The position numbers were made by a program, and so were the translations under genes. The notes beneath the pieces are model-generated. The model did not search any database and had not been told where the DNA came from. It saw nothing but the letters and a program-made list of their open reading frames with translations. This document shows positions 16,832 to 58,540 of a stretch of DNA of 64,000 nt, one piece after another. The DNA is from an uncultured Bacteroidales bacterium (GTDB taxonomy: Bacteria; Bacteroidota; Bacteroidia; Bacteroidales; UBA932), in the NCBI GenBank assembly GCA_944325495.1, contig CALVAD010000003.1:62001-126000 (forward strand), written 5' to 3'. Each line of letters begins with the position of its first letter. Positions within the stretch are counted from its first letter, which is position 1.

Positions 16832-16961
16832 TGTCGCCGGCCGGGGAGCCTCCGGGGAGGCTTGCCGGCCGCGGCAGTGAGCGGGCAATGCTCCATAGCG
16901 AAGCGAAGGAGCATTGATGAAGCGTAGCGGAACCTCCCCGGAGGCTCCCCGGCCGGCGACA
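16832..16961 (+). repeat. Class A hairpin element, copy A1
   Basis: Perfect 29-bp arms (16832-16860 and 16933-16961) flank a 72-nt core. The core starts CTTGCCGGCC, has a small stem around the loop GGCAGTGA (GGCCGC and GCGGGC, one mismatch), then an inner stem CAATGCTCC/GGAGCATTG, and ends GATGAAGCGTAGCGGAA. The element lies between the divergent mnmA and cdd genes. No T-tract follows. Confidence 0.85.
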
Positions 16962-17020
16962 TGGTTGCTGAAATATGATTTAAAAGGCGGGCATTGGCTT
17001 GAAATTCAAAAACAGTTTTT

Positions 17021-17028
17021 TATATTTG
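17021..17028 (+). promoter_or_regulatory. -7 box of cdd
   Basis: TATATTTG, 22 nt before the ATG chosen for cdd at 17051. It makes the ATG at 17030 an unlikely start because that would sit upstream of the transcription start. Confidence 0.65.
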
Positions 17029-17050
17029 AATGATTTATAACCACATTTTG

Positions 17051-17524
17051 ATGACCGAGAAAGAAATAAGAATCGTCTATACCGAGTATTCCTCACTTGA
17101 AGAGCTGGGTCCGGAGGACCGCGAACTGGCCGAGGCCGCCGTCGATGCGATGGGCGGCGCCTACGCTCCATATTCGCATTTCCATGTCGGGGCTGCGGTG
17201 CGGCTTTCCGACGGCAGGATAGTCAGGGGTGCGAATCAGGAGAACGCCGCCTTCCCGTCCGGGCTGTGTGCGGAAAGGACTGCGATGTTCGCCGCGAGTG
17301 CGCAGTTTCCGGGCAAGGACATGCTGAGCATCGCGATCGCCGGCGGTCCGCTGGGCAGGCTCGGGCCGAACCCCGCGGCCCCCTGCGGCGCCTGCCGTCA
17401 GGTCATGGCCCAGTACCAGGCCAAGTCCGGGAAACCCATGAGCGTCCTTTTCGTGGCTTCGGGCAAGATTCTGAAATTCAACAGGGTCGATGACATCCTG
17501 CCGTTCATTTTCAACAATATATAG
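17051..17524 (+). CDS. cdd: Cytidine deaminase
   Basis: 157 aa from ATG 17051. The zinc-dependent deaminase signature is complete: substrate segment YAPYSHFHVGAAV, NQENAAFPSGLCAERTA (catalytic Glu and first Cys ligand), and PCGACRQVMAQY (two Cys ligands). It converts cytidine and deoxycytidine to uridine forms in pyrimidine salvage. It is monocistronic: a promoter precedes it and the SRP RNA promoter follows 52 nt after its stop. Confidence 0.95.
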   Translation: MTEKEIRIVYTEYSSLEELGPEDRELAEAAVDAMGGAYAPYSHFHVGAAVRLSDGRIVRGANQENAAFPSGLCAERTAMFAASAQFPGKDMLSIAIAGGPLGRLGPNPAAPCGACRQVMAQYQAKSGKPMSVLFVASGKILKFNRVDDILPFIFNNI

Positions 17525-17576
17525 CCTCCGATTCGTCCTCCGCGGTCAGTCGGTATGGATATTTATGAAATTTTAC

Positions 17577-17584
17577 TAACTTTG
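17577..17584 (+). promoter_or_regulatory. -7 box of SRP RNA gene
   Basis: TAACTTTG placed 4 nt before the first paired base of the SRP RNA, exactly where the box should be for transcription to start at 17589-17590. Confidence 0.8.
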
Positions 17585-17588
17585 CGGC

Positions 17589-17692
17589 GGGGAAAGTCGT
17601 ACACGACCAGCTCCCTCCGAACTCCCCCAGGGCCGGAAGGCAGCAAGGGTAGGAGGTTGTAGCGGTGCGATGTGCTAAGCTTTCCCTTTTTT
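17589..17692 (+). ncRNA. ffs: Signal recognition particle RNA, small bacterial type (4.5S)
   Basis: The conserved Ffh-binding hairpin is visible as GGCCGGAAGGCAGCAAGGGTA at about 17631-17650 (GGAA tetraloop and the asymmetric A-rich bulge). The ends pair as GGGAAAG (17590-17596) with CTTTCCC (17680-17686), followed by a run of six T (17687-17692) acting as terminator. The length of about 100 nt fits the short SRP RNA. The next gene begins 10 nt further on, so read-through could reach it. Confidence 0.95.
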
Positions 17693-17702
17693 GTATTCAG
17701 TC

Positions 17703-19085
17703 ATGAAATCAGATATCGTGGTGGTCGGAGGCGGGGCTTCCGGACTCATGGCCGCGTATGCGGCGGCCGACTGTCTCGTGGGCGCAGGTTCCGGCGCCCA
17801 GGTGCTCCTGCTGGAGAAGATGCCCAGACCGGCGCGCAAGATAATGATTACCGGCAAGGGCCGGTGCAATTTCACCAATGTCAAGGACTGGACGGACTTC
17901 TCGTCCCATCTGCGGGCCAATGCCGCCGCTGTGAGGCCTGCCTTCTACAATCTGACGCCGGAGGCGCTGATGCGCTTCTTCGATGAATTCGGCATGAAGT
18001 CGGTCGTGGAGAGGGGTGACCGCGCCTTCCCGGAATCGCATCTGGCTTCGGATGTGGTCGACACGCTCGTGCTGGCATGCAATTCCAAGGGAGTCAAGAT
18101 AATGTGCGGCGCCGAGGTTTCCTCTGCCGGGCGCAGGGGAGAGAAGTTCCGGCTGGAGCTTGCGTCGGGCGAAAGCTGCGAGTGCGCGAAACTGGTTCTC
18201 GCCACTGGCGGTCTCAGCTATCCCGCCACTGGCTCCACCGGCGACGGCTATGCCTGGGCTGAGGCCTTCGGCCACGGGGTAGTGAGGACCTTTCCCTCGC
18301 TCACGGCTCTCGTGCCGGTCGGGTACAAGCAGCCCGCAGGTCCGGATCCCGCCTTGCCGCGTCATGTCGACCGCGCCGTTCCGCTTGCCGAACTGGGGGA
18401 GAAGCTCTGCGGAGTTCATCTGAAGAATGTCGGAATGTCCCTCGAGGTCGACGGCAATACGGTGGATTCGGAGTTCGGCGACGTGGATTTCACCGACGGA
18501 GGCATTGAAGGGCCTCTCGGCTTCCGCTTCAGCCGCAGGGCGGTCAAGGCTCTGCTCAACGGAGGCCGTGCGGCACTGGTGCTCGACCTGAAATCCGCAG
18601 TCGGCGAGGAGGAGCTGTCGGAACGCGTCAGGCAGCTGTATTCGGAGATTGAGTCTGACCCCCGCTCGCAGCGCATCCGGGAGAAGGAAAGATGCCGCAT
18701 TCTGCTCGGAAAGCTCATGCCCTGGGACCTTATCCCCGGTTTCACGGCGATGCATCCGCGGATTTTTTTCGTCTCGCGGCTCCGCAACGGCAGACAGCTG
18801 GTCAAGGTCAATCTCGACGTGATAGCGCGGGCTCTCAAGAACTGGCGTTTCCCGCTCGACGGCTATGTGGGCTATGAGCGCGCGGTAGTGACGGCCGGAG
18901 GGGTCTCCATCGACGGAATCGTGCCCAAGAGCATGGAATCCAGGCTCGTTCCGGGTTTGTACTTCTGCGGCGAACTGCTCGATATCGATGCCGATACGGG
19001 AGGTTACAATCTGCATTCCGCCTTCGCGACAGGCGCACTGGCGGGGCTCAATGCCGCCAAGGCGCTGCTGGCTGCCGGGGCCTGA
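17703..19085 (+). CDS. BaiN/HI0933-family NAD(P)/FAD-dependent flavoprotein
   Basis: 460 aa from ATG 17703. The frame is open to 17691 with a TTG, but the ATG directly precedes the flavin motif. Motifs in order: IVVVGGGASGLMAAYAA (FAD-binding), ARKIMITGKGRCNFTN (family hallmark), ATGGLSYPATGSTGDGY, and the C-terminal block CGELLDIDADTGGYNLHSAFATGALAG. Members include BaiN-like and YhiN-type proteins, whose substrates are mostly unknown, so no pathway is assigned here. It follows the SRP RNA directly and has no separate visible promoter. Confidence 0.88.
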   Translation: MKSDIVVVGGGASGLMAAYAAADCLVGAGSGAQVLLLEKMPRPARKIMITGKGRCNFTNVKDWTDFSSHLRANAAAVRPAFYNLTPEALMRFFDEFGMKSVVERGDRAFPESHLASDVVDTLVLACNSKGVKIMCGAEVSSAGRRGEKFRLELASGESCECAKLVLATGGLSYPATGSTGDGYAWAEAFGHGVVRTFPSLTALVPVGYKQPAGPDPALPRHVDRAVPLAELGEKLCGVHLKNVGMSLEVDGNTVDSEFGDVDFTDGGIEGPLGFRFSRRAVKALLNGGRAALVLDLKSAVGEEELSERVRQLYSEIESDPRSQRIREKERCRILLGKLMPWDLIPGFTAMHPRIFFVSRLRNGRQLVKVNLDVIARALKNWRFPLDGYVGYERAVVTAGGVSIDGIVPKSMESRLVPGLYFCGELLDIDADTGGYNLHSAFATGALAGLNAAKALLAAGA

Positions 19086-19177
19086 AACTGATCCTGCCGG
19101 GGCTTGAAGCCGGGGCTGCCAGGCTGCGTCATGATTTATCTATAAGCGGCAGCAGTTGTGGAAATGAGGAGCTGAGC

Positions 19178-19258
19178 GTCTGCTGACGGAGTTGCCCCGA
19201 CGCTGTAGCAGCCGGCGCACGACCCTATACAGCATCGGGGCAAGCTCCGTCAGCAGAC
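19178..19258 (-). repeat. Class C hairpin element, copy C3
   Basis: Arms 19178-19207 and 19228-19258 are complementary apart from one bulge and one G-T pair. The loop is exactly 20 nt, and on the minus strand reads TAGGGTCGTGCGCCGGCTGC, matching C1 and C2. Confidence 0.75.
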
Positions 19259-19262
19259 TCCA

Positions 19263-19485
19263 CATGCAGGTCGGGTTGCCATATTAAACCAAGGTCGTCG
19301 CATGCAGGTCAGGTTGCCATATTAAACCAAGGCCGTCGCATTCCGGCAGGTCAGCCATGTAAAGCCAACGCGTCTCATGCAGATAGAGCCGCCATATTAA
19401 GCCATGGCCGCCGCATTCCGGCAGGGTAACCATGTAAAGCCAACCCGTCTCATGCGGATAGAGCCGCCATATGAAATTGCCGTCG
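19263..19485. repeat. Six imperfect 37/38-bp tandem repeats
   Basis: Units start at 19263, 19301, 19339, 19376, 19414 and 19451, each opening with CATGC or CATTCC and containing GCCAT(A/G)T.AA. Two forms alternate. Units 1, 2, 4 and 6 have GCCATATTAAR or a variant, and units 3 and 5 have CATTCCGGCAGG with CCATGTAAAGCCAAC, so the later part looks like a duplicated 75-bp pair. No stable hairpin is evident in a unit, and the units are adjacent without spacers, which excludes CRISPR. Confidence 0.8.
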
Positions 19486-19495
19486 CATGCAATCC

Positions 19496-19571
19496 GTCCT
19501 CCGGGACCTTCCCTCCGGCCGTATAGGGTTGTGCGCAGGTCCTTACGGCCGGAGGGAAGGCCCCGGAGGAC
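19496..19571 (+). repeat. Class C hairpin element, copy C2
   Basis: 28-bp arms (19496-19523 and 19544-19571) with one mismatch of G-T type. The loop is exactly 20 nt, TAGGGTTGTGCGCAGGTCCT. It shares the loop frame with C1 and C3, with arms unrelated to theirs. Confidence 0.8.
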
Positions 19572-19637
19572 AATTCCAAGCCGTCCTGCTTCACCAACCC
19601 TGCCGGCGGGCGATTTTGACCACGGAATAAATATTCG

Positions 19638-19645
19638 TAATTTTG
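19638..19645 (+). promoter_or_regulatory. -7 box upstream of GNAT gene
   Basis: TAATTTTG, 24 nt before the ATG at 19670. It places the in-frame upstream codons from 19643 before the transcript start, which supports ATG 19670. Confidence 0.6.
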
Positions 19646-19669
19646 CCTGATTTGATAAAAACAACAGCA

Positions 19670-20230
19670 ATGGAACTCAGAAAAATACTCCCCGGCAGCC
19701 CCGACGCCGCCCTGATGGACGAAGTCAACCTCGAATCCTTCCCTCCCGAAGAACAGATGAGCACCGCCATGCAGACCGGTCTCTGTGAAAAGGGAGAGCT
19801 CGAAGTCTGGGCGATATATGACGGAGAGGACTTCGTGGGTTTCACCACCGTGTTCCCGGGGACGAAACTCGCATATGTGTTCTTCCTCGCGATCAGCAGC
19901 AATGTGCGCTCCAAGGGTTACGGCACGAAGGTGCTCGACCTGCTCCGCCGCCAGTACGCCGGCAGGCGGGTGGTGCTCGACATAGAGCCGGACGATCCTT
20001 CAGTCCCGGACAACGAGCTGCGCCGGCGCAGGAAGCAGTTCTATCTTCGCAACGGTTTCCTCGAAAGCGGCTACCTGCTGGAATACTGCGGGCTGAGCTT
20101 CGAGATACTCTACGACGGGCCAGGAAGTTTCAGCCTCGCCGACTACGAGGAGCTCATGGGCGGCATATCGTCCATGATCAGGTCCTGCGGCTTCGAAGTC
20201 TTCAAGCCGGAAATTTCTCCGATTGCCTGA
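19670..20230 (+). CDS. GNAT-family N-acetyltransferase
   Basis: 186 aa. The core GNAT fold is visible: FFLAISSNVRSKGYGTKVLDLL carries the acetyl-CoA loop (R-S-K-G-Y-G), followed by VVLDIEPDD and the C-terminal FYLRNGFLESG. The acceptor side is not recognisable. It has its own -7 box and a 59-bp gap before the lipoprotein gene, so it is probably transcribed alone. Unlike the GNAT at 5.6 kb it has no small partner gene and its codon use resembles the surrounding core genes, so I see no reason to call it a toxin. Confidence 0.85.
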   Translation: MELRKILPGSPDAALMDEVNLESFPPEEQMSTAMQTGLCEKGELEVWAIYDGEDFVGFTTVFPGTKLAYVFFLAISSNVRSKGYGTKVLDLLRRQYAGRRVVLDIEPDDPSVPDNELRRRRKQFYLRNGFLESGYLLEYCGLSFEILYDGPGSFSLADYEELMGGISSMIRSCGFEVFKPEISPIA

Positions 20231-20289
20231 TGCAAGGTTTCTGCGGAAACTGCATTATGTCAATGGAAAGAATTTAAAACGACCTGATT

Positions 20290-21057
20290 ATGAAACGATT
20301 CATCTTACCGATTGCATTGATCGCCGCGGCGGGACTCATGTCGACCGCCTGCTTCAAGGACCTTGAGGGCTACGACGGGACATTGTTCTATCCCAACGCC
20401 ATAGTGACCGCCAGGACTTCGGATGCCGGGGAATTCTATCTCCAGCTCGACGACGAGACATCGCTGAAGCCCGACAACATGGTCAAGTCCCCCTACGACA
20501 AGGAGGTGCGGGCGCTCGTCAATTTTACCGACAAGGGACCCTGGACGGCCTCTGAAGACGGCGGCATGACCTTCGACAGGACGGTGACGGTCAACGCCAT
20601 CGACAGCGTGCGCACCAAGGACGCCGTCCCGACCAAGGGTGACAAGGACGACGAGGTCTACGGCACCGCGCCCATATCCATCATCACCAACAGCTGGACG
20701 GTGCTGGAGGACGGATATCTGACGCTGACATTCTGCGCATACTGGGGCAATCCGTACATTTATCACGAGATCAATCTCGTGACCGGAACCGATCCGGAGA
20801 ATCCCTATCTCGTGGAATTCCGCCACGACCCTCTCGATGACACCCTGTATTATCCCGGAGGGCTCAAGGCCACGGGCATAATAGCCTTCCGTCTCGACGG
20901 GGAGCTTGCGGACGCCGACCACCTCGACATCAAGTTCAACTCCCTCTACGGTGGCGACAAGGTCTGGACCATCGAGAGGAACGACAACTACTATGTCGGC
21001 GACGGCTCCGGGAGCCGCTCCACGACGCAGCTGACGGACGAACTCGCCGTCAGGTAA
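20290..21057 (+). CDS. NigD-like lipoprotein
   Basis: 255 aa with a lipoprotein signal (STAC at residues 18-21). The block EFYLQLDDETSLKPDN followed by DKEVRALVNFTDKG matches the N-terminal OB-like domain of NigD-like proteins, and the C-terminal half (VLEDGYLTLTFCAYWG ... HEINLVTGTDPENPY) is the NigD-like beta domain. NigD proteins are surface or periplasmic lipoproteins of Bacteroidales, first named in a bacteriocin locus, and their biochemical role is unknown. The ECF sigma gene follows 14 nt downstream, suggesting a shared transcript. Confidence 0.85.
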   Translation: MKRFILPIALIAAAGLMSTACFKDLEGYDGTLFYPNAIVTARTSDAGEFYLQLDDETSLKPDNMVKSPYDKEVRALVNFTDKGPWTASEDGGMTFDRTVTVNAIDSVRTKDAVPTKGDKDDEVYGTAPISIITNSWTVLEDGYLTLTFCAYWGNPYIYHEINLVTGTDPENPYLVEFRHDPLDDTLYYPGGLKATGIIAFRLDGELADADHLDIKFNSLYGGDKVWTIERNDNYYVGDGSGSRSTTQLTDELAVR

Positions 21058-21071
21058 TTTCCGAAGTCCGG

Positions 21072-21638
21072 ATGAACGGCAGCGGCAAGCCGGCGGAGGC
21101 GGAACTTGTCCGCAGGGCAAGGCTCAAGGATACTGCCGCGGTCAGAGCGATCTATGACTCTTACGCGCAGTATCTTTTTGCCGTATGCCGCCGTTATACC
21201 GGAGATTCCGAATCCGCAGCCGATGTCCTTCAGGACAGTTTCGTGAAGATTTTCACCTCTCTCGACAGATTCGAATGGAGGGGAGAAGGTTCTCTCAGGT
21301 CATGGATGAGACGCATCGCCGTCAACGAGGCGCTGATGTACCTGCGCTCCAGAAAGCGCGACGAGGGGTTCGTCTCCTCCGTCCGGCCGCCGGAGAATGT
21401 TCCGGACGAGGAGCCTGAGGTTGACGACATACCGATGCCTGAACTTCAGAGGATGATAGCGGAGCTTCCCGAGGGCTACAGGACGGTATTCAATCTGTAT
21501 GTGTTCGAGAACATGAGCCATAAGGAGATAGCCGCGGCTCTCGGAATCAGTGAGAACACTTCATATTCCCAGTTCAGCAGGGCCAAGACTCTGCTCGCCA
21601 AGAAGATAAAAGAATATAGAGCGAATGGTCAACAATGA
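21072..21638 (+). CDS. ECF-type RNA polymerase sigma factor
   Basis: 188 aa. Region 2 is seen in IYDSYAQYLFAVCRRYTGD...AADVLQDSFVKIF with the DNA-melting segment FEWRGEGSLRSWMRRIAVNEAL. Region 4 has LPEGYRTVFNLYVFENMSHKEIAAALGISENTSYSQFSRAK. A negatively charged linker (PDEEPEVDD) lies between. The 3' end overlaps the next gene by 14 bp, the normal arrangement for a sigma factor and its membrane-bound regulator. The signal sensed is unknown. Confidence 0.93.
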   Translation: MNGSGKPAEAELVRRARLKDTAAVRAIYDSYAQYLFAVCRRYTGDSESAADVLQDSFVKIFTSLDRFEWRGEGSLRSWMRRIAVNEALMYLRSRKRDEGFVSSVRPPENVPDEEPEVDDIPMPELQRMIAELPEGYRTVFNLYVFENMSHKEIAAALGISENTSYSQFSRAKTLLAKKIKEYRANGQQ

Positions 21639-22875
21639 CTGGCAGGACAAATTGAGGTCCGGAATGGAGAATTATTCCGAGCCCGTTCCGGATTCGGTCT
21701 GGAACGCGGTTTCGGCCGGAGTGTCCGGAGCCTGGGACCGGCAGCGGAGGCTGAGACGCCGCCGGCGCATGTATGCGGCCGCCGTCTCCGTTTCGGCTGC
21801 CGCGGCGCTTGTGCTCGCGCTTCTTCCTTCCGGGTCCGGGGATATTCGTCCCGTTTCGCCCGAACGGCGCATAGCCTATGCCTCGGCGCCGGCATTCCCG
21901 TCCGGAATGTTTTCTCCGGCGAAAGCCCGTGAGCTCGTGGATCTTCCCTCCCGTAGCGGAGAGGCGTCCGCCGGGCCCGACGGAAATGCCGGAACTCAGG
22001 CGGGCTTGTCCGGTGTCCGTGCTTCCGCTGACGAAGAAGCCGGGACAGAGCGGGCGTCCCTGCCTTCGGGAGAGGCTGAATTGCCTGGAGCTCCGTCCGG
22101 AGAAACCTCGGGAGCCGCACCGGCAGTGCCGGAAGGAGCGGAGGAGTTCTTCCCGCTTTTCGCCGATGATGCGGGGCGGCGTTCCGGACCGCGTGTCGCC
22201 CTGAATTTCAGGGCTTCGAATCTGGCTTCCGGCGCTTCCGGCTCGGCGGGCTACAGCGGCATGTTCGGTTCGACGGTCATGCCTTCCGCCGCCGGTTCGA
22301 GAGACCAGGTCGACGGCTATTCGTCCGTCCTGATGAACAATAATTCGATGGAGGTCGCCACCAGCACCAGATACTGGCAGCCGGTGAGCGTCGGAGTCAC
22401 GGCTTCATTGAGCCTGACCGACAATCTGGCCGTCGAGAGCGGACTGAACTATTCGTGTCTGATTTCCGACCTCTCGTCCGGAACCGCCGAGAACCGCTAT
22501 GACATACGCCAGACTCTCCATTATATAGGCGTTCCGCTGAGACTGAGGCTGTCGCTGTGGACTCCCGGAAACTTCGACATCTATCTTAGCGCCGGCGGAG
22601 AGGTGGAGAAATGTGTCTACGGAACGACTTCCACGACCTATTTCGTGGATTCGTCGCCTCTGTCCTCCGCTTCTGCGCGGATTGATGACGACAGGCTGCA
22701 ATGGTCCGCAGGCGCTTCCGTAGGACTCGGTTACCGTTTCAATGATTTTCTCGGCATTTATGCGGAGCCCGGCGTCAGCTGGCATTTCAGCAACGGGAGC
22801 TTCGTCGAGAGCGTGTACAGCCGGAAGCCTTTCAATTTCAGCCTCGCCCTGGGCCTGCGTTTCTATCTCAATTGA
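21625..22875 (+). CDS. Membrane-anchored regulator fused to outer-membrane-type beta-barrel
   Basis: 416 aa. Residues 1-47 are cytoplasmic with the motif EPVPDSVWNAV, common in anti-sigma-like proteins of Bacteroidetes. A strongly basic stretch (RQRRLRRRRRMY) precedes one membrane segment (about 49-66). Then comes a 120-residue Pro/Ala/Gly/Glu-rich linker, and from about 225 a beta-barrel-type domain with amphipathic strands ending in FNFSLALGLRFYLN, the usual C-terminal strand of PorT-like barrels. Overlap with the ECF sigma gene suggests that it binds and controls that sigma factor. How a barrel-type domain tied to the inner membrane works is not clear. It may fold as a soluble periplasmic sensor. 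Confidence 0.8.
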   Translation: MVNNDWQDKLRSGMENYSEPVPDSVWNAVSAGVSGAWDRQRRLRRRRRMYAAAVSVSAAAALVLALLPSGSGDIRPVSPERRIAYASAPAFPSGMFSPAKARELVDLPSRSGEASAGPDGNAGTQAGLSGVRASADEEAGTERASLPSGEAELPGAPSGETSGAAPAVPEGAEEFFPLFADDAGRRSGPRVALNFRASNLASGASGSAGYSGMFGSTVMPSAAGSRDQVDGYSSVLMNNNSMEVATSTRYWQPVSVGVTASLSLTDNLAVESGLNYSCLISDLSSGTAENRYDIRQTLHYIGVPLRLRLSLWTPGNFDIYLSAGGEVEKCVYGTTSTTYFVDSSPLSSASARIDDDRLQWSAGASVGLGYRFNDFLGIYAEPGVSWHFSNGSFVESVYSRKPFNFSLALGLRFYLN

Positions 22876-22939
22876 CGGCCGGCGCGGGACATGGCCTGCG
22901 CGGGTGAAGTGCGGATTTTGCCGAATACAAATTTTGCGG

Positions 22940-22947
22940 TAATTTTG
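22940..22947 (+). promoter_or_regulatory. -7 box of fabK-fabF unit
   Basis: TAATTTTG, giving a leader of about 50 nt that contains a GC-rich imperfect hairpin (around 22951-22982). Confidence 0.6.
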
Positions 22948-23002
22948 CAGGCCGTGCCGGCGGAAAGGCTGCCGTGCACGGCATGCTAAAACCAGACAAT
23001 CC

Positions 23003-23950: not shown

Positions 23951-23956
23951 AAGAAA

Positions 23957-25210: not shown

Positions 25211-25224
25211 CTGATGTCCCGGCG

Positions 25225-25280
25225 GACAATGCCGGCACGGAGGTTTTCGCCGAATCAGGTGCCTCCGTGCCGGCATTGTC
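25225..25280 (-). repeat. Class B hairpin element, copy B1
   Basis: Perfect 19-bp arms (25225-25243 and 25262-25280), with a weaker outer extension, around an 18-nt loop TTTTCGCCGAATCAGGTG. The arms end AGG and begin CCT as in class A. The element lies between two convergent genes and lacks a T-tract on the distal side. Confidence 0.75.
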
Positions 25281-25326
25281 TGTCCGTGGGTAAGCCCGCT
25301 TGTACGGAAGGGCGGAGTCCGGTCGG

Positions 25327-34047: not shown

Positions 34048-34165
34048 TTTCGTCATGCGGGCGGGCTGCGCTGAAAGGCTTGCCGTCCGCGGCAGTGAGC
34101 GGACGATGCGCAGCATCGATGAAGCGTAGCGGAACCTTTCAGCGCAGCCCGCCCGCATGACGAAA
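34048..34165 (+). repeat. Class A hairpin element, copy A2
   Basis: Perfect 31-bp arms (34048-34078 and 34135-34165) around the shortest core, 56 nt. The core begins CTTGCC, and its small stem GTCCGC/GCGGAC around GGCAGTGA is perfectly paired with a base-pair change relative to A3. The inner stem CGATGC/GCATCG has a 3-nt loop. The core ends GATGAAGCGTAGCGGAA. It lies right after the degP terminator and about 80 bp before rpoD. Confidence 0.85.
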
Positions 34166-40720: not shown

Positions 40721-40851
40721 GAATGCGGAGCCGGCAGCCTCCGGGGAGGTTCCGCTACGCTCCATCAATGCTCTCTCCGCTTCGCTACGGAGCATTGCCC
40801 GCTCACTGCCGCGGGCGGCAAGCCTCCCCGGAGGCTGCCGGCTCCGCATTC
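40721..40851 (-). repeat. Class A hairpin element, copy A3
   Basis: Perfect 29-bp arms (40721-40749 and 40823-40851) around a 73-nt core in reverse orientation. Read on the minus strand the core has the perfect small stem GCCCGC/GCGGGC around GGCAGTGA, the inner stem CAATGCTC/GAGCATTG, and the end GATGGAGCGTAGCGGAA. It sits between convergent ClC and GH106-like genes. Confidence 0.87.
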
Positions 40852-46296: not shown

Positions 46297-46366
46297 CCGG
46301 AGGCAGTGTGCGCCGGAGGAGGCTTTTCCCTGTTTCATCGCCTCCTCCGGCGCACACTGCCTCCGG
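46297..46366 (-). repeat. Class B hairpin element, copy B2
   Basis: Perfect 26-bp arms (46297-46322 and 46341-46366) around an 18-nt loop. Read on the minus strand the loop is CGATGAAACAGGGAAAAG, close to the 3' end of the class A core (CGATGAAGCGTAGCGGAA). It lies between convergent genes, with no T-tract. Confidence 0.82.
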
Positions 46367-50025: not shown

Positions 50026-50033
50026 CAACTTTG
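50026..50033 (+). promoter_or_regulatory. Probable -7 box of hmu operon
   Basis: CAACTTTG, one base off consensus, 31 nt before the first hmu-operon start. Confidence 0.5.
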
Positions 50034-50063
50034 CAGCCGGAAAAAACATAAAACTCTCAGACC

Positions 50064-50519: not shown

Positions 50520-51161
50520 ATGAAGAGGCTCTTTTTCTTGACATTCCTCGCGTTGCTGCCGTCCTGCAACGGGATTTTCCATGGGATTTACGATTCCGGC
50601 GAAGGGGAGCTCATAACCGAATACGGCTTTCTTGAATATAATCCCACGGACAATTCCGGCACCATATACATTGACGCTACTGACTACACGAAATGGATAT
50701 ATCTTGATTTCTCCGAAAGGACGGCGGTGACTGCGGGGATGTCTGAAGAAGAAGCTCCTGCCGAATGGGACATCGCGGTGCACCGCTACGATGTCAAGAC
50801 CAACGGCGCGGCCGCCCTGGAGACAGGCATGACAGGACTGGAGCTCTTCATGAGCTCCGGAGCCATGCCCGAGGGCGACTATGTCAGCGATGAATGGACT
50901 ACCGAACAGATAATAGTCGACATGTCCGGCATGATGGACGGCAATATCGGCTACAGCGAAAGCTGGTACAACCGCGAGCTCTCGAAGTGGCTCAAAGTGG
51001 ACACGGGCACGATGCCGCCGGTCTATTCCATGTCACAGAAAGTCTATGCGGTGAAGCTGGCAGACGGGACGCATCTCGCGCTCAAGCTTTCCAACTATAT
51101 GGACGCCACGGGAGTCAAGGGCTTCATGACCATAGATTATGTTTATCCGGTAGAATTCTGA
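50520..51161 (+). CDS. hmuY: HmuY-family haem-binding lipoprotein
   Basis: 213 aa with a lipoprotein signal (LPSC, residues 13-16). The HmuY core block WDIAVHRYDVKTNGAAALETG is intact (in the Porphyromonas family 'WDIAFHR.D..TN'), and the final strand FMTIDYVYPVEF is also typical. HmuY sits on the cell surface, takes haem from host proteins and hands it to HmuR. Haem ligands vary in this family (His in P. gingivalis, Met in relatives); I cannot tell which are used here. Five more hmu genes follow in the same order as the known hmuYRSTUV operon. Confidence 0.9.
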   Translation: MKRLFFLTFLALLPSCNGIFHGIYDSGEGELITEYGFLEYNPTDNSGTIYIDATDYTKWIYLDFSERTAVTAGMSEEEAPAEWDIAVHRYDVKTNGAAALETGMTGLELFMSSGAMPEGDYVSDEWTTEQIIVDMSGMMDGNIGYSESWYNRELSKWLKVDTGTMPPVYSMSQKVYAVKLADGTHLALKLSNYMDATGVKGFMTIDYVYPVEF

Positions 51162-51165
51162 GAAT

Positions 51166-53304
51166 ATGGGAAAACTTTTGTTCAGCGCCTGCCTTGCGTG
51201 TCTGGCGGCCGCATCCCTTCAGGCGCAGATAAGGATAAGCGGAAGCGTGCTCGACGAGAAGGGTGAGGCGATACCGGGAGCCGCGGTGACCGTGGACGGG
51301 ATGCCCGGAACCGGCGCGGCTACGGATCTCGACGGCAGCTATGGCTTTGAAATCCCGCAGACGGGACAGAACCGGATCGTCCTCGTCGCGTCGGCGGTGG
51401 GATACGAGAGCCAGCGCCGGCGTATCAGCGAGCCGCAGGGCTCATACGGGGAGGATTTCGTGCTCCGGGAATCGCAGGAGCTGCTTGAGACCGTGGTGGT
51501 CACCGCGACGCGCACTCCCAAGCCACTCAAGGACGTGCCCATCATCACGCGCGTCATCTCCGCCGAGGAGATCGCCCGCGCCGATGTCGTGCACATAGGT
51601 GAGCTGCTGGAGACCGAGCTGCCCGGTCTGGAGTTCTCGTATTCGATGGACCAGCAGGTGTCCCTGAACATGCAGGGTTTCGGAGGGAATTCGGTGCTTT
51701 TCCTGGTCGACGGCGAGAGGATGGCGGGCGAAACCCTCGACAACATCGACTACAACCGCCTGAATCTCGACAATGTGGAGAGGGTGGAGATAGTCAAGGG
51801 GGCCGCTTCCTCACTCTACGGCTCCAACGCCATTGGCGGAGTCGTGAACATCATCACCAGGGAGCCGGCGGAACCCTGGTCGGTCAGCATGAACACGCGC
51901 TACAGCACCTTGGGCCAGAAGGTAGGTTCGATTTCCGCCGGCTTCCGGGCGGGGAGACTTTCCGGCCTCACCAACGCCCAGTATGTCCAGAGCGACTCCA
52001 TCTCCCTGAAGAACGACGGCGACTATTCCAAAGTCTACGGCAGCTGGAACTACAATGTCAAGCAGCAGCTGGTCTACAGGCCGCTTGACAGGCTGAAGAT
52101 CACCGGCAAGGCCGGCTATTATTTCCGTCAGCGCGACGCGTCGCCGGACGTCAAGGACAACTACCGCGACTTCAGCGGCTCGCTCAAGGCGGAATACGAC
52201 TTCGCCGAAAGCGACAACCTCACTCTGGGCTATGCTTTCGACCAGTATGACAAGAGCAACTACATGGTCGCCGGAAGCCGCGACGTGCGCGAGTACAGCA
52301 ATGTGCAGCACAATGTGCGCGCCCTGTACACCCACAGCTTCGGCAAGAGCGACAACCTCGTGTTCGGCGGCGACTTCATGAGGGACTATCTGATGTCCTA
52401 CCAGTTCAGCGACGGCGCGAAAGCCCAGTACACCGGCGACCTGTTCGCCCAGCTTGACTGGAGCCCGACCGACAGGCTCAATTTCGTGAGCGGCCTGCGT
52501 TTCGACTATTTCTCCGACAGGAATCTCTTCCACGCCTCTCCCAAGCTCGGAGTCATGTACAAGATAAGCAACTGCTCCGTCAGAGCCTCATACGCCGGCG
52601 GATTCAGGGCACCGACGCTCAAGGAGATGTACATGAACTTCAACATGGCGAACATCTTCATGATCTACGGCAACCCGGACCTCGAAGCCGAGGAGAGCCA
52701 CAACTTCTCGCTTTCGGCGGAGTACATGACCCGGCGCCACAACCTCACGCTCACGGGATACTGGAACCTTGTGGACAACCGTATCACCACGGCGTGGAGC
52801 GACGCGCTCAAAGGGCAGCTCTACACCAACATGGCCCCGCTCCAGGTCGCCGGATTCGACCTCAACTTCTCGGCCGCATACGACTTCGGCCTCAAGTACA
52901 GGATCTCCTACACCTTCACGCACGAGAAGATAGAGAAGGGGCAGCCGATGACCTCCTCGACCCGTCCCCACAGCGCCACGGTCAAGATAGAATACGGCAA
53001 GGACTGGAGGACATACGGCTTCGACATCGCTCTGACCGGCCGCGTGATGTCGGCTGTCACGGCGGATGTCTACACCTCGCTCACCGATTACAGCCAGACT
53101 GAGAAGCAGACCTACCCGGGCTACACGATGTGGAAGCTTTCGATAGCTCAGCGGATATGGCACGGCATCAGGCTCAACGCCATAATCGACAACCTGTTCA
53201 ACTATGTCCCCGACTATTACTACAACAACAGTCCGGCGACCGTCGGCACGACCCTCTCGCTGGGGCTGTCGCTCGACTTCAATGAAATATTCAACAACAG
53301 ATAG
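51166..53304 (+). CDS. hmuR: TonB-dependent haem receptor HmuR
   Basis: 712 aa. Signal peptide 1-20 (ending LQAQ), a carboxypeptidase-regulatory-like domain (about 21-110: ISGSVLDEKGEAIPGAAVTV), a plug domain (IGELLETELPGLEFSYSMDQ ... VERVEIVKGAASSLYGSNAIGGVVNI) and a beta-barrel ending at a terminal phenylalanine-containing strand. The haem-receptor motifs are present as FRAP (GGFRAPTLKE) and NPDL (YGNPDLEAEESHN). It imports haem across the outer membrane using TonB-ExbBD energy. TonB itself is not in the window. Confidence 0.93.
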   Translation: MGKLLFSACLACLAAASLQAQIRISGSVLDEKGEAIPGAAVTVDGMPGTGAATDLDGSYGFEIPQTGQNRIVLVASAVGYESQRRRISEPQGSYGEDFVLRESQELLETVVVTATRTPKPLKDVPIITRVISAEEIARADVVHIGELLETELPGLEFSYSMDQQVSLNMQGFGGNSVLFLVDGERMAGETLDNIDYNRLNLDNVERVEIVKGAASSLYGSNAIGGVVNIITREPAEPWSVSMNTRYSTLGQKVGSISAGFRAGRLSGLTNAQYVQSDSISLKNDGDYSKVYGSWNYNVKQQLVYRPLDRLKITGKAGYYFRQRDASPDVKDNYRDFSGSLKAEYDFAESDNLTLGYAFDQYDKSNYMVAGSRDVREYSNVQHNVRALYTHSFGKSDNLVFGGDFMRDYLMSYQFSDGAKAQYTGDLFAQLDWSPTDRLNFVSGLRFDYFSDRNLFHASPKLGVMYKISNCSVRASYAGGFRAPTLKEMYMNFNMANIFMIYGNPDLEAEESHNFSLSAEYMTRRHNLTLTGYWNLVDNRITTAWSDALKGQLYTNMAPLQVAGFDLNFSAAYDFGLKYRISYTFTHEKIEKGQPMTSSTRPHSATVKIEYGKDWRTYGFDIALTGRVMSAVTADVYTSLTDYSQTEKQTYPGYTMWKLSIAQRIWHGIRLNAIIDNLFNYVPDYYYNNSPATVGTTLSLGLSLDFNEIFNNR

Positions 53305-53307
53305 CTT

Positions 53308-56300
53308 ATGAAAACTCGTTCACGGGTTCTGGTGACTGTCTCCATACTGGCCGTATGCGCCGCCATCTGCGCGATATGGTCAGTATGGCTTTCACCTGTG
53401 AGGATAGGGTTCGTCAACTACCAGACGATGACTCTCGGGCAGATTGCCAAAGCCAATACGAACAGATTCATCAGGATACGGCAGCTTGACGGCGAGAACC
53501 TCCGGAAGATTTCGCGCAGCGACTTCGTGTTCATCAACGGAATGGGCATGCGCATCACCGAAGACGAGCGCGCCCTCATCCGCAAGGCGGCCGAAAGGGG
53601 AGTGCCCATGATCACCACCATGGCGACGAATCCGGCCAACGACATCACTACGGTGGACTCCCTCCAGCGGGAGACCCTGTCGGCATATCTTTCCGGCGGT
53701 GACCGCGCCAATTATCACAACATGCTCGAATATGTGCGCGGGGAAGTCTGCGGCAGGCTGCTGTGGACCGACAAGCCGGGAGCGCCGACCGTGCCGGAAT
53801 ACGGTCTGCTGTACCATGCCGATCCGGACGACCCCGACGGCGGGGACATCCCCTTCGCCTCGGTCAGGGAATATGAGGGCTGGCTGCGCTCCGAAGGCCT
53901 TTTCAAGCCGGGGGCGCCGGGCGTCGTGGTCACCGGCCCCATGGGCGACCCCGCCGAGCTCATAGCCGCGCTGGAGAAGAGCGGCAAGAATGTCTATCCG
54001 GTGAACAACATGCGCCTTTTCATCCTGAAGCACCATGCCGATTCCGTGGATGTCTCCGCGCTCATCAACATGGCGCACGGAAGGATGGGGGACTATATAA
54101 CCGACTTCCTTGAGGAGAGGAACGCGCCGCTGTTCACTCCGCTGAACGTCAACACCCTGGTCAGCGAGTGGGAGGAGGACCGGATGGGCATGAGCGGAGG
54201 ATTCATGTCGCAGAGCGTCGTGACTCCGGAGATAGACGGGGCGATACGTCCTTTCGCCCTTTTCGGCCACTATGAGGGCAAGGACGGCCTCCAGTACCTC
54301 AAGGCGATTCCCGGCAGGCTGGAGGAGTTCGTTGAGACCGTGGACAGGTACATCGCGCTGAAGAAGCTTCCGGACAGCGAGAAGAAGGTCGCGATATTCT
54401 ACTACAAGGGACCCGGACAGAACAGCCTGACGGCCGCAGGCATGGAAGTGCTGCCGTCGCTCTACAATTTCCTGAAGGAGCTCCGTTCGGCCGGCTACAG
54501 GGTTGAAGGGCTTCCTGCCAGCGAGGCTGAATTCGGAAAACTCGTCCAGCGCCAGGGCGCCGTGTTCGGCACCTACGCCGAAGGGGCGATAGCCGATTTC
54601 ATCGAAAACGGGAATCCCGGGCTGGTTTCGGCAGCCGATTATGAGAAATGGAGTTCCGAGGCGCTCGGTCCGGAGATGGCCGCGGAGACTGCCGAGGTGA
54701 ACGGAGAATTCCCGGGAAGCTACCTTGCGACCGAAGACGGACGGCTTGCGATTCCGCGGGTGGAGCTCGGCAACATCGTGCTGCTTCCCCAGCTTGCGGC
54801 GGGCATGGGCGATGACGAATTCAAGATAGTCCACGGCACCGACAACGCCCCTCCTTATCCCTATATCGCCGAATACCTCTGGGCGCGCATGGGCTTCGGC
54901 GCGGATGTCATGATACACTTCGGCACTCACGGAAGCCTGGAGTTCACTCCTTCCAAGCAGGTCGCCCTGAGCAGCCGCGACTGGCCGGACAGGCTCGTGG
55001 GGACCACGCCGCATCTCTATGTCTACACGATATCCAACGTGGGTGAGGCCATGATCGCAAAGCGCCGCTCCTACGCGGGAATACAGTCCTACCTGACCCC
55101 TCCGTTCATGGAGAGCGGACTTCGCGGCACATACAGGGAACTCAAGGATGCGATAGGCCGGTATTATGACGCGGCGGCTCAGGGAGGCGATGCTGCCTCC
55201 GAGTCCCGCAAGGTCAAGGAGCTCGCGCTCGAAATGGGGCTGCATCGCGACCTGCGACTCGACTCGCTTTCGACATCCGGCTATACCGAGGAGGAGATCG
55301 CACGTATCGACAATTTCGCCGAGGAGCTCACCAACGAGAAGATCACCGGAGAGCTATACACCATGGGCGAGCCGTACGAGCCGGCAAGGATACGCAGCAG
55401 CGTCTTCGCGATGGCGAGCGACCCCATCGCATATGCTCTCTACGCCCTGGACAGGCAGCGCGGCATTGCGGATGCAGGACTGGAAGAAAACTCCCGCAAG
55501 TTCAACCGCGAGTATCTCGAACCTGCGAAGGAGATAGTGCGCCGCGTACTTGACAACCCCGGCCTGGCTGATGACGGATTCATCTGCGGTCTCGCCGGAA
55601 TCAGCCGCGACGAGCTTGCCGACGCAAGAAAGACGGTGGCGCGGCTCGACCGTCCTAAAAGCATGATGGAGCTGATGATGAACCCGGCCGGAAGTGCCCC
55701 TGAAACGGAAATCAGCGATGAACGGGAGGCGTATCTGCGTGCCGTGGTGCAGCTGGCGACGGCGGTGGAGAACATAGACAACTACTCCGTCGCTCTGCGC
55801 GAGAGTCCGCGTGAGGAGTTCCGTTCCTTGCTCAACGCCATGGATGGAGGTTATGTCGCTCCTTCTCCAGGAGGCGACCCGATAGTCAACCCCAACACCC
55901 TGCCCACGGGGCGCAACCTCTATGCGATAAACGCCGAGGCTACGCCTTCCGAGAAAGCCTGGGAGGAGGGCAGGAAGCTCGCTGAAAGAACCATCGAGAT
56001 GTACCGCCGCAACCACAACGACTCCATCCCGCGCAAGGTCAGCTATACGCTCTGGAGCGGGGAGTTCATCGAGACCGAAGGGGCCACGATAGCCCAGGTG
56101 CTCTATATGCTCGGCGTCGAACCGGTGCGTGACGCATTCGGCCGCGTGACCGATCTCAGGCTGATTCCCTCCGCTGAACTCGGGCGTCCGAGGATAGACG
56201 TCGTGGTGCAGACCAGCGGACAGCTGCGCGACATAGCCGCCTCGCGTCTCTTCCTGATAAGCCGCGCCGTGGAGATGGCCGCGGCGGCAAGGGATGACGA

Positions 56301-57405
56301 TTACCGGAATCTTGTCGCGGAAGGGGTCGTGGAGTCCGAGAAGATGCTGACCGAGAGGGGAGTGAGTCCAAGGGAAGCCCGCGAACTTTCGAGATACAGG
56401 GTGTTCGGCGGCGTGAACGGCGGCTACGGCACCGGCATCACCGGGATGATACAGAACGGCGACAGCTGGGAGGACAGCGGACAGATCGCCGACAGGTACA
56501 TGCGGAACATGGGCGCCTACTACGGCAGTGAGGACGAGTGGGAGAAGTACGGCGACTATGCGTTCGAGGCGGCTCTCGGCGGCACGGACGTGGTCATACA
56601 GCCGCGTCAGAGCAACACCTGGGGCGCATTGAGCCTCGACCATGTCTACGAGTTCATGGGAGGGATGAACCTCGCGGTGCGCAAGGTCACCGGCAAGGAC
56701 CCCGACGCCTACCTGAGCGACTACCGCAACCACAACAACATGCGCATGCAGGAACTCAGGGAGGCCATTGGCGTGGAGAGCCGCAGCACCATCTTCAATC
56801 CCGCATATATCAGCGAGAAGATGAAAGGCGGGGCGGGCGCCGCATCCGGATTCGCGGAGATAGTCCAGAACACCTACGGATGGAATGTCACGAAGCCTTC
56901 GGTCATCGACGACGAGATGTGGGACGAGATATACGATGTCTATGTCAAGGACAAATTCGGCCTGGGCGTGGAGGAGTATTTCGGAAACAGCAATCCGGCG
57001 GCTCTCGAGGAGATCACCGCCGTGATGATGGAGACTGCGCGCAAAGGCATGTGGGACGCCGGCGAGAGGCAGCTTCAGGACATAGCCGCCCTGCACTCGC
57101 GTCTCGTGGACGAGTACCTGCCTTCCTGCTCGGAGACAGTATGCGACAACGCTCCGCTGCGCAATTTCATAGCCTCGAAGCTTGACGCTCCGGCTGCCGT
57201 GCGCTACAATTCGAACATCGACAATATACGCGAGGCGAGAAGCTCCGGCAGTGACGGGGTCGTGATGAAACGGGAGACGCTGGACGAGGGGGCCGCACGG
57301 CGCACCGCGGTTCTCAGCAACACCGTAGTCGCAGTGTTCGCCGCCGCGGCACTCGTGGTTATCGTGCTTCTGGTCCGCAGAAGGCGCAGAAACAGTCCGC
57401 AGTAG
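53308..57405 (+). CDS. hmuS: HmuS, CobN-like chelatase subunit for haem iron removal
   Basis: 1365 aa, class II chelatase large-subunit (CobN/BchH) family. It has a membrane segment at each end: residues about 7-29, and 1336-1354 followed by RRRRR. The about 1300-residue catalytic part should therefore lie in the periplasm. Family segments include VHGTDNAPPYPYIAEYLWARMGFGAD, FGTHGSLEFTPSKQVALS, FGGVNGGYGTGITGMIQNGDSWED and DVVIQPRQSNTWGALSLDHVYEF. No CobS/CobT or cobalamin genes are near, which argues against cobalt insertion. In hmu operons this protein is proposed to take iron out of haem. Confidence 0.92.
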   Translation: MKTRSRVLVTVSILAVCAAICAIWSVWLSPVRIGFVNYQTMTLGQIAKANTNRFIRIRQLDGENLRKISRSDFVFINGMGMRITEDERALIRKAAERGVPMITTMATNPANDITTVDSLQRETLSAYLSGGDRANYHNMLEYVRGEVCGRLLWTDKPGAPTVPEYGLLYHADPDDPDGGDIPFASVREYEGWLRSEGLFKPGAPGVVVTGPMGDPAELIAALEKSGKNVYPVNNMRLFILKHHADSVDVSALINMAHGRMGDYITDFLEERNAPLFTPLNVNTLVSEWEEDRMGMSGGFMSQSVVTPEIDGAIRPFALFGHYEGKDGLQYLKAIPGRLEEFVETVDRYIALKKLPDSEKKVAIFYYKGPGQNSLTAAGMEVLPSLYNFLKELRSAGYRVEGLPASEAEFGKLVQRQGAVFGTYAEGAIADFIENGNPGLVSAADYEKWSSEALGPEMAAETAEVNGEFPGSYLATEDGRLAIPRVELGNIVLLPQLAAGMGDDEFKIVHGTDNAPPYPYIAEYLWARMGFGADVMIHFGTHGSLEFTPSKQVALSSRDWPDRLVGTTPHLYVYTISNVGEAMIAKRRSYAGIQSYLTPPFMESGLRGTYRELKDAIGRYYDAAAQGGDAASESRKVKELALEMGLHRDLRLDSLSTSGYTEEEIARIDNFAEELTNEKITGELYTMGEPYEPARIRSSVFAMASDPIAYALYALDRQRGIADAGLEENSRKFNREYLEPAKEIVRRVLDNPGLADDGFICGLAGISRDELADARKTVARLDRPKSMMELMMNPAGSAPETEISDEREAYLRAVVQLATAVENIDNYSVALRESPREEFRSLLNAMDGGYVAPSPGGDPIVNPNTLPTGRNLYAINAEATPSEKAWEEGRKLAERTIEMYRRNHNDSIPRKVSYTLWSGEFIETEGATIAQVLYMLGVEPVRDAFGRVTDLRLIPSAELGRPRIDVVVQTSGQLRDIAASRLFLISRAVEMAAAARDDDYRNLVAEGVVESEKMLTERGVSPREARELSRYRVFGGVNGGYGTGITGMIQNGDSWEDSGQIADRYMRNMGAYYGSEDEWEKYGDYAFEAALGGTDVVIQPRQSNTWGALSLDHVYEFMGGMNLAVRKVTGKDPDAYLSDYRNHNNMRMQELREAIGVESRSTIFNPAYISEKMKGGAGAASGFAEIVQNTYGWNVTKPSVIDDEMWDEIYDVYVKDKFGLGVEEYFGNSNPAALEEITAVMMETARKGMWDAGERQLQDIAALHSRLVDEYLPSCSETVCDNAPLRNFIASKLDAPAAVRYNSNIDNIREARSSGSDGVVMKRETLDEGAARRTAVLSNTVVAVFAAAALVVIVLLVRRRRRNSPQ

Positions 57406-57408
57406 GAT

Positions 57409-58092
57409 ATGGAGACGGTTGTCAAGGTCGCAATGGTGCTGGTGAGCTTCAGCTTCGTGCTCAAGCTCACGGGCTACAAGCTGCGCCAGCTGCTGCTGAT
57501 GTCCCTGCTGTGCGCACTGTTCGTGGGTTTCTCGTGGCAGTTCGCGGCGGAGCAGTCGAAGACCGCGATCGCTTCATGGCTGTCGGATCGGGAGCTGATG
57601 CAGGACATAGCCGTGCTGATGACCCTGGACGTCGCGTTGCAGATGGCATACTGCCTTATGGCGGTGAATCTGATGAACAGCGGCCCGCTCAAGAGACGTA
57701 CGATATTGGTGTACAAGTTTTTGCGTCTTTTCCCGGGTATAATGGTGTTTCTGGTTCTGTTCAGCCTGCTGGTCAGCTGCGTGTTCGCGTTTCCCGGAGT
57801 GTCGTTCTCGCTGATCTCGTGGTGCATGGCCGCTGCGGTGCTGGTGCTGCTGCCATTGGCGGTGCTTGGCGTCAGGAAGCTGCTCCCGGAGAAGGAGATA
57901 AGGCTGGAGCTGCTGTTTCTGTCGAACGCCCTGACCGCTGTGCTGGGAGTGATCGCGACCGTGAACGGCACGACGGCTTCCGAGAGCGTGGATTCGGTGG
58001 ACTATCCTGCCACCGCCGCCGTTTTCGGCATCGTCCTTCTCGGCGCCGCGCTTGGTTTTCTGCTGTACCGCATAAAATCCCGGAAGTCATGA
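57409..58092 (+). CDS. hmuT: HmuT, integral membrane protein of hmu system
   Basis: 227 aa with about six predicted membrane segments (for example VVKVAMVLVSFSFVLKL, LLLMSLLCALFVGFSW, PGIMVFLVLFSLLVSCVF, SLISWCMAAAVLVLLPLAVL, LFLSNALTAVLGVIATV, AAVFGIVLLGAALGFLLY). I see no transporter-family motif. The order hmuY-R-S-T-U-V identifies it. It starts 4 nt after hmuS. After its stop comes a 477-bp gap with two class A hairpins before hmuU, so the operon is interrupted at this point. Confidence 0.8.
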   Translation: METVVKVAMVLVSFSFVLKLTGYKLRQLLLMSLLCALFVGFSWQFAAEQSKTAIASWLSDRELMQDIAVLMTLDVALQMAYCLMAVNLMNSGPLKRRTILVYKFLRLFPGIMVFLVLFSLLVSCVFAFPGVSFSLISWCMAAAVLVLLPLAVLGVRKLLPEKEIRLELLFLSNALTAVLGVIATVNGTTASESVDSVDYPATAAVFGIVLLGAALGFLLYRIKSRKS

Positions 58093-58116
58093 CGAGTCTG
58101 ATTTATATTGTATCGG

Positions 58117-58248
58117 CCGTAGAGGTGACGGCTTCCTCACAGGAGGTTCCGCTGCGCTTCATTGATATTTCTTCGCTACGCTGCGAAATATCACCCGCTC
58201 ACGGCCGCGGGCGGCCAGCCTCCTGTGAGGAAGCCGCCACCTCTATGG
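58117..58248 (-). repeat. Class A hairpin element, copy A4
   Basis: 28-30-bp arms (58117-58146 and 58219-58248) with two wobble-type mismatches, around a 72-nt core in reverse orientation. Read on the minus strand it has the small stem GCCCGC/GCGGGT-type around GGCCGTGA, an inner stem GATATTTC/GAAATATC that is completely different in sequence from the other copies yet fully paired, and the end AATGAAGCGCAGCGGAA. Confidence 0.85.
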
Positions 58249-58406
58249 CGAAAGATACTCTTATATGAGTTTTTGATACCTTGGTTTGGGATTGACAGAA
58301 TATATAATAATGTGAGAATTAATGACAGTAGCCTTTGCGTCGTATGTTTGTATCAAGAAAATGATTCAAGATGCAAAAAGTTTATGGAAGTTGACGCGGG
58401 CAGGAG

Positions 58407-58540
58407 CCGTTCATGGACTGTTTGCCTCTGGAGAGGCTGGCCGCCCGCGGCTGTGAGCGGGCGATGCTCATAGTGAAACGGAGAGCATCGATGGAGCGCG
58501 AAGCGCGGAACCTCTCAGGAGGCAAACAGTCTATGAACGG
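58407..58540 (+). repeat. Class A hairpin element, copy A5
   Basis: 30-bp arms (58407-58436 and 58511-58540) with three to four mismatches, the most decayed pair, around a 74-nt core. The small stem GCCCGC/GCGGGC surrounds GGCTGTGA, the inner stem is CGATGCTC/GAGCATCG, and the end is GATGGAGCGCGAAGCGCGGAA. It ends 29 bp before the hmuU start. Confidence 0.83.

What the first reader, a model, noticed from the sequence alone, without database searches (positions are those of the whole stretch)
16832..58540. Class A elements: five hairpins with a conserved core and locus-specific, compensating arms
Seen directly: copies at 16832-16961, 34048-34165, 40721-40851, 58117-58248 and 58407-58540. All share a core beginning CTKGCCG and ending GATGRAGCGyAGCGGAA, with arm borders always ...AGG and CCT.... 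The 28-31-bp arms pair almost perfectly within each copy. They are otherwise different between copies, except that A1 and A3 share about 14 bp of GC-rich inner arm. Transposition of a unit would carry the same arms everywhere. Different arms that stay paired need either a core that inserts into existing palindromes, an inverted-duplication step at insertion, or strong selection on structure. Both orientations occur and all copies are intergenic. I know of no named family with this architecture.
Basis: seen in the sequence. Interest (0 to 1): 0.88.

Follow-up and report, generated by a model that had tools for sequence, protein, structure and literature searches.

The report
Miniature palindromic insertions with self-matching arms
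Some Bacteroidales bacteria carry dozens of small hairpin-shaped DNA insertions, in relatives even inside working genes, whose two arms change together over time, probably because DNA copying uses one arm as the template for the other.

Summary
The five hairpins are real and at the stated places. The window lies in a Bacteroidales genome, apparently Cryptobacteroides; a core model finds 43 copies there. Related cores with paired arms occur across the genus, some in frame inside conserved genes such as TilS and MazG. Orthologous copies in two relatives explain the puzzle. Arms of one locus differ between species, but changes are mostly matched: against G201, 28 two-sided, 16 one-sided and 4 other changes in 310 pairs. 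The core is inverted in 8 of 25 ortholog pairs, two of them doubtful matches. One TilS arm holds an inverted copy of adjacent conserved codons. These are the marks of replication template switching between inverted-repeat arms. Nine parsed TilS genes without the element have only 7-16 codons at the site, against 45-100 in ten with an insert, so a waiting palindrome is not supported. In G175, 12 copies share both arms, so core and arms can spread together. I read the family as an RPE/REP-like miniature insertion element, not found in the libraries and papers searched, whose arms are kept matched mainly by mutation. Its mobiliser is unknown.

The parts
16832..16860 (+). A1 left arm (29 bp)
16861..16932 (+). 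A1 core (72 nt, long-middle type)
16933..16961 (+). A1 right arm, perfect complement of the left arm
34048..34078 (+). A2 left arm (31 bp)
34079..34134 (+). A2 core (56 nt, short-middle type)
34135..34165 (+). A2 right arm, perfect complement
40721..40749 (-). A3 arm (29 bp); the G201 ortholog differs at 3 of 29 pairs, all changed on both sides
40750..40822 (-). A3 core (73 nt); its inner loop appears inverted in the G201 ortholog
40823..40851 (-). A3 arm, perfect complement
58117..58146 (-). A4 arm (30 bp, two mismatches with its partner)
58147..58218 (-). A4 core (72 nt)
58219..58248 (-). A4 arm
58407..58436 (+). A5 arm (30 bp, three mismatches); similar arms in G175 enclose a core in the opposite orientation
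58437..58510 (+). A5 core (74 nt, variant 3' end)
58511..58540 (+). A5 arm

Best explanation
Class A elements are copies of a non-coding miniature palindromic insertion element of about 110-135 bp found in one Bacteroidales genus, similar in habit to Rickettsia palindromic elements. Core and arms can spread together (shown by shared arms in G175; in TilS the inserted length covers both). After insertion each copy's arms drift away from those of other copies but stay matched to each other, because replication template switching copies one arm onto the other in single events (inferred from the pattern of changes). The same process turns the core round between the arms and can extend the palindrome into neighbouring host DNA (inferred; one clear case). 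Cores are kept alike within a genome by exchange between copies or by selection (inferred). The enzyme that moves the unit is not identified.
For: G000-G201 orthologs, 11 loci, 310 arm pairs: 262 same, 28 changed on both sides and still Watson-Crick (21 transversions), 16 one-sided, 4 other; G000-G175, 7 loci, 181 pairs: 129, 38, 13, 1. Third codon positions of three genes differ by 20-40% between G000 and G201, so unlinked arms should show mainly one-sided changes; the third-position spectrum is 408 transversions to 268 transitions. Core orientation differs in 4 of 15 G201 and 4 of 10 G175 pairs; L060/L125 keeps 27 of 28 arm pairs round an inverted core, and at A3 the inner loop alone appears inverted. 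TilS: 10 genomes with 45-100 codons, one remnant with 23, nine with 7-16; 10 of 10 tested spacers (nine filled and the remnant; G194 not tested) pair beyond the best of 200 shuffles, and the G011 left arm holds CAACGGTCT, the reverse complement of conserved Arg-Pro-Leu codons on the right. Twelve G175 copies share both arms. In-frame copies lie in genes with Pfam matches. Arm homogenisation and spacer inversion are published marks of template switching (PMC8604942; PMC8794818).
Against: No strain-level pair was available, so no single event was caught; the genomes compared share roughly 75-95% of flanking DNA. Arms were defined by pairing, which hides one-sided changes at the outer ends. Four ortholog pairs with unlike arms were left out of the totals (G201: 61 pairs, 31 same, 21 matched, 4 one-sided, 5 other; G175: 60 pairs, 25, 29, 4, 2) and three were too short; nine further locus pairings gave no element by the finder. 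Two of the 25 ortholog pairs (L043/L151, L051/L168) are doubtful. Most of the 12 G175 copies also share sequence outside the arms, so a larger repeat may have moved; L166 is the clearest case of arms and core alone. Filled TilS sites are not clustered on a weakly resolved tree (7 changes, shuffled mean 7.2). Two filled TilS sites (G105, G194) have inserts whose core was not confirmed as this family. Target-site duplications were not sought. Core conservation could be selection.
Confidence: 0.72

Rival explanations
1. Selected structure: the long hairpin is needed, for example as a two-way transcription terminator or mRNA 3' end, and point mutations in one arm are compensated under selection.
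For: 11 of 29 fitted copies lie between convergent genes, and 16 of 39 distances to a neighbouring 3' end are under 40 nt. At two orthologous places one species has class A and another a hairpin of another kind (C1:95579 against G201; window 25225 against G175).
Against: Only 4 of 29 have a T-rich tail on either side; 21 of 28 matched changes are transversions, which cannot pass through G-U; copies sit in frame inside genes elsewhere in the genus; presence varies between relatives; core orientation is not kept.
Confidence: 0.13
2. A mobile core inserts into the loops of pre-existing long palindromes.
For: The genome also has long hairpins without the class A core; A5-like arms hold different cores in G000 and G175; L044/L157 have identical arms but different cores.
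Against: Nine parsed TilS genes without the element have 7-16 codons there; the two core-free hairpins seen at orthologous places have unrelated arms; unlike cores in like arms can come from exchange between copies.
Confidence: 0.06
3. A REP-like element moved by a Y1/RAYT transposase, now lost from the G000 group.
For: Y1_Tnp matches in 11 of 20 genus genomes tested, 9 over the family cut-off; one lies about 0.55 kb from an element (G153).
Against: None found in G000, G175 or G201, where the best-scoring copies are, though these assemblies are 82-93% complete; of 15 Y1 loci scanned one held an element, inside mazG; of five Y1 loci whose flanks were printed, at least two have small matched palindromes of their own (by eye).
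Confidence: 0.08

Closest known systems
Rickettsia palindromic elements (RPE)
   Same: Small palindromic repeats of about 150 bp in several families, many inserted in frame into unrelated protein genes (passages of PMC10969869, and PMC3733652).
   Different: Other phylum; no RPE sequence was compared. A constant core with locus-specific, co-evolving arms of 20-32 bp and frequent core inversion are not in the passages read.
GTAG- and CGTC-tagged REPs
   Same: Dispersed palindromes, mostly downstream of genes, with complementary stem variants, some intragenic; CGTC repeats are listed in Bacteroidetes and apparently lack a dedicated transposase (PMC3733652, abstract and passages).
   Different: Stems of 5-13 bp (GTAG) or 8-9 bp (CGTC) with a fixed unpaired tetranucleotide at one end; here arms of 21-32 bp and no fixed tag outside the core.
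Inverted repeats shaped by replication template switching
   Same: Arm homogenisation, stem extension and inversion of the spacer (PMC8604942, abstract and passages; PMC8794818, abstract and passages).
   Different: In the parts read these are single-locus inverted repeats or RNA genes with short spacers or loops; here the pattern is on a multicopy insertion family with cores of 47-74 nt.
Coding palindromes of Nematomorpha mitochondria
   Same: Long perfect inverted repeats inside working genes (PMC6649704, abstract only).
   Different: There both arms encode conserved protein; here the palindrome is an added peptide.

Membership tests
Rickettsia palindromic element (as a kind) | In-frame insertion of a palindromic unit into unrelated genes | tested here: met
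   In genus relatives: TilS/PP-loop, MazG, PurL (GATase_5), a THUMP-like protein, Fe-ADH, EamA. Not seen for the five window copies.
Rickettsia palindromic element (as a kind) | Sequence similarity to RPE families | not tested
   No RPE sequence was fetched.
REP/RAYT (GTAG) system | RAYT/Y1 transposase in the genome, flanked by the repeat | tested here: not met
   0 Y1_Tnp in G000, G175 and G201, all incomplete assemblies; 1 of 15 Y1 loci in relatives near an element.
REP/RAYT (GTAG) system | Short stem with unpaired GTAG at one end | tested here: not met
   Arms of 21-32 bp with borders AGG/CCT and no fixed outer tag in the copies.
CGTC REP | 8-9-bp stem starting AT, unpaired CGTC and short tail | tested here: not met
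   Arms and borders against the description read.
MITE | Terminal inverted repeats shared between copies | tested here: inconclusive
   Different in most G000 copies shown, shared by 12 copies in G175.
MITE | Target-site duplication | not tested
   No close empty/filled pair at DNA level.
Rfam family | Match at gathering score | tested here: not met
   Window: only SRP RNA and a tRNA. Five loci at E<=5: only matches below gathering score.
Intrinsic terminator | Hairpin followed by a run of T | tested here: not met
   25 of 29 fitted copies lack a T-rich tail on both sides; 4 have one.

The most novel reading that the evidence does not exclude
The palindrome is made at insertion: a core with short inverted ends lands, the growing strand folds back on it and copies 20-30 nt of the neighbouring host DNA in inverted form. 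Each insertion would thus build its own locus-specific arms from the target, an element that ends in inverted copies of its target instead of direct ones.
Probability: 0.2. Interest if true: 0.88.

Novelty: new variant of a known kind. Interest (0 to 1): 0.68.

Why it matters
Covarying stems are usually taken as proof of selection on RNA structure. Here is a dispersed natural family, with many orthologous copies between related genomes, in which near-perfect covariation appears to be produced by a mutation process, with core inversion and capture of host codons as its marks. It offers a replicated natural system for measuring template switching in bacteria, a caution for covariation-based RNA discovery, and another bacterial group, besides Rickettsia, in which palindromic elements appear to add peptides to conserved enzymes.

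Tried and rejected
Y1/RAYT mobiliser: looked for and not linked. Known RNA family: none at gathering score. Viral carriage: 0 exact matches of the core pattern in viral contigs. Of the 80 genome-contig loci listed, three are not from Bacteroidales or Bacteroidia (L220 Lachnospiraceae, L231 Solirubrobacterales, L233 Flavobacteriales); by eye they lack the left half of the core and I take them as chance. The one 17-mer hit in G009 reads as part of a coding frame that I recognise from memory as miaA and is taken as chance. G001/G130 (L068/L080) looked at first like a clean one-arm correction, but the left flanks beyond are unrelated, so it is not used. The TilS tree could not separate one insertion with losses from several insertions. 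In one search the partner base of the closing pair was indexed wrongly and is not used. Papers: full-text searches; judged by titles and abstract openings, none listed a paper on this family.

Rows dropped or missed before counts: four ortholog pairs with arm identity under 0.6 and three with arms under 15 bp are outside the totals (their counts), nine locus pairings gave no element by the finder, at least two of them places where or 29 shows an element that it missed, 9 of 30 fetched TilS loci were not parsed, and the frame match makes 'in frame' true by construction for the parsed ones; G004 has the element but no open frame to the RPLL anchor, 13 of 83 elements at contig edges were not assessed, 50 of 70 scored 12 or more against 4 of 350 controls (control maximum 29.5), 1 of 30 loci had no fit and one had no arm.

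Full report
What is there. The five class A hairpins are as described. The window is G000:C3:62001-126000 of a 2.02-Mb, 61-contig assembly and carries a Bacteroidales small SRP RNA. The genus is inferred: two contig lengths of G175 (50,106 and 34,850) equal those of Candidatus Cryptobacteroides avistercoris records, and G175 is listed as the same genus as the window. Long perfect hairpins are far beyond chance: 20 shuffles of the window gave no arm over 14 bp, while the window has 27, 29, 29 and 31 bp.

The family. An alignment of 22 cores and a model from it (R1) give 43 hits in this genome, 30 in G201 and 43 in G175, at E<=0.01. In a genus sample 41 of 400 genomes have a hit at E<=1e-4, strong in G000, G175 and G201 only, the others at about 31-41 bits, under stricter filters. 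None was found in viral contigs. By eye the wider family keeps GCCGnCCGyGGC, GTGARCGG and GATGRAGCGnAGCGGAA, while inner borders vary in matched pairs (AGG/CCT, AACC/GGTT, AGAG/CTCT, GACC/GGTC). Of 70 assessable copies 44 have a stem score of 15 or more; the inner 18 nt of these 44 arms have a median pairwise identity of 0.28, with 24 of 946 pairs at 0.85 or more.

Inside genes. In other species of the genus the element lies in frame inside genes with Pfam matches: TilS (PP-loop), MazG, PurL (GATase_5), a THUMP-like protein, an Fe-ADH and an EamA transporter. TilS gives empty and filled sites. Of 30 loci fetched, 21 were parsed. Between the conserved GLRGI-like and RPLL-like motifs nine genomes have 7-16 codons, ten have 45-100, and one (G160) has 23 with a remnant hairpin; G004 has the element without an open frame to the anchor. 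In two of the ten (G105, G194) the core was not confirmed as this family. The core occurs there in both orientations, for example G047 and G048. So the insertion covers core and arms; no palindrome was waiting in the nine parsed empty genes. Filled sites are not clustered on the tree (7 changes, shuffled mean 7.2), which leaves one old insertion with losses and repeated insertion both open. All 10 spacers tested, nine filled and the remnant, pair beyond the best of 200 shuffles.

How the arms stay matched. Orthologous copies in G000 and G201 (11 loci, 310 arm pairs) show 28 pairs changed on both sides and still Watson-Crick, 16 changed on one side, 4 other and 262 the same; G000-G175 (7 loci, 181 pairs) show 38, 13, 1 and 129. 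Four pairs with unlike arms, left out of these totals, show 50 matched, 8 one-sided and 7 other changes in 121 pairs. Third codon positions of three genes differ by 20-40% between G000 and G201, so unlinked arms would show mainly one-sided changes. Twenty-one of the 28 are transversions, compared with 408 of 676 third-position changes; G-U intermediates would favour transitions. The core is inverted in 4 of 15 and 4 of 10 pairs; two of the 25 pairs are doubtful matches, one of them among the G175 inversions. L060/L125 keeps 27 of 28 arm pairs round an inverted core, and at the A3 locus only the inner loop appears inverted. At the A5 locus G175 has similar arms with the core reversed.

Capture of host DNA. 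In G011 TilS the left arm begins CAACGGTCT, the reverse complement of the conserved codons AGA CCG TTG that follow the insertion, within a 61-column arm; in G111 the palindrome runs into the conserved Ile-Pro codons, a weaker case of six bases. In G201 the L038 ortholog has arms scored at 163 bp that include the end of the upstream gene, with a few mismatches; it lies at a contig end, so an assembly error is possible.

Moving as a unit. Twelve G175 copies at different places share both arms. Most also share sequence outside the arms, so a larger repeat may have moved; L166 shares little beyond the arms, and its arms are perfect where most others share the same mismatches. The G344/G112 type has nearly constant arms. 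In G000, A3 and two other copies share 24 bp of arm with one difference. Locus-specific arms are therefore best read as those of old copies. Cores are typed by species group: the third core base is A in 28 of 30 G175 cores, T in 20 of 32 G000 cores and T in 20 of 28 G201 cores. L044/L157 have identical arms over 26 pairs, mismatches included, but cores that differ at four bases. This suggests exchange between copies; selection on the core is not excluded.

Function. Of 29 fitted G000 copies 11 lie between convergent genes, 10 in tandem gaps, 6 overlap a mechanical ORF and 2 are at edges; 4 have a T-rich tail. The longest such ORF, in L062, has no Pfam match. I see no case for termination as the reason for the family, though some copies may act as terminators.

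Comparison with print. PMC8604942 (abstract, passages) and PMC8794818 (abstract, passages) describe arm homogenisation, stem extension and loop inversion by template switching. PMC3733652 (abstract, passages) and PMC10969869 (passages) describe REPs and RPEs; PMC6649704 was seen as abstract only. None of the searches listed a paper that by title or abstract opening treats this family. I therefore call it a new variant of a known kind: an RPE/REP-like element in Bacteroidales with long co-evolving arms and an invertible core.

Noticed in passing
window 59698-59757, 25225-25280, 46297-46366; C1 88275, 124871, 188484, 243846 (within L019-L032): A second hairpin class: locus-specific arms of 17-28 bp round a loop of mostly 16-18 nt resembling GGNGATTYGNGRAAA, inner arm often GGCAGGC/GCCTGCC. 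By eye absent from G201 and G175 at 46297 and 59698; a hairpin of this kind holds the place of a G201 class A element at C1:95579.
   Followed up: partly
window 19496-19571 and 19178-19258; C1 147292-147448; G175 copies: A third hairpin type with a loop like CCGCGCAGCCCTATACTGCC, next to several class A copies in G175.
   Followed up: no
window 58117-58540 against L082 (G201:C133): In G201 the A4 and A5 elements are fused into one, left half from A4 and right half from A5, with roughly 230 bp between gone.
   Followed up: partly
L112 (G201:C22, contig end): Palindrome with arms scored at 163 bp that include the end of the upstream gene; fold-back duplication or assembly error.
   Followed up: partly
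L300 (G011 TilS): A second palindrome of about 19-bp arms stands where the end of the core should be, inside the larger 61-column one.
   Followed up: no
L280-L287: Divergent ~310-aa Y1_Tnp proteins in genus relatives; L282 and L283 have small matched palindromes on both sides.
   Followed up: partly
C1 167239-167393: A hairpin followed by a further copy of its right arm, so that one arm sequence occurs three times.
   Followed up: no
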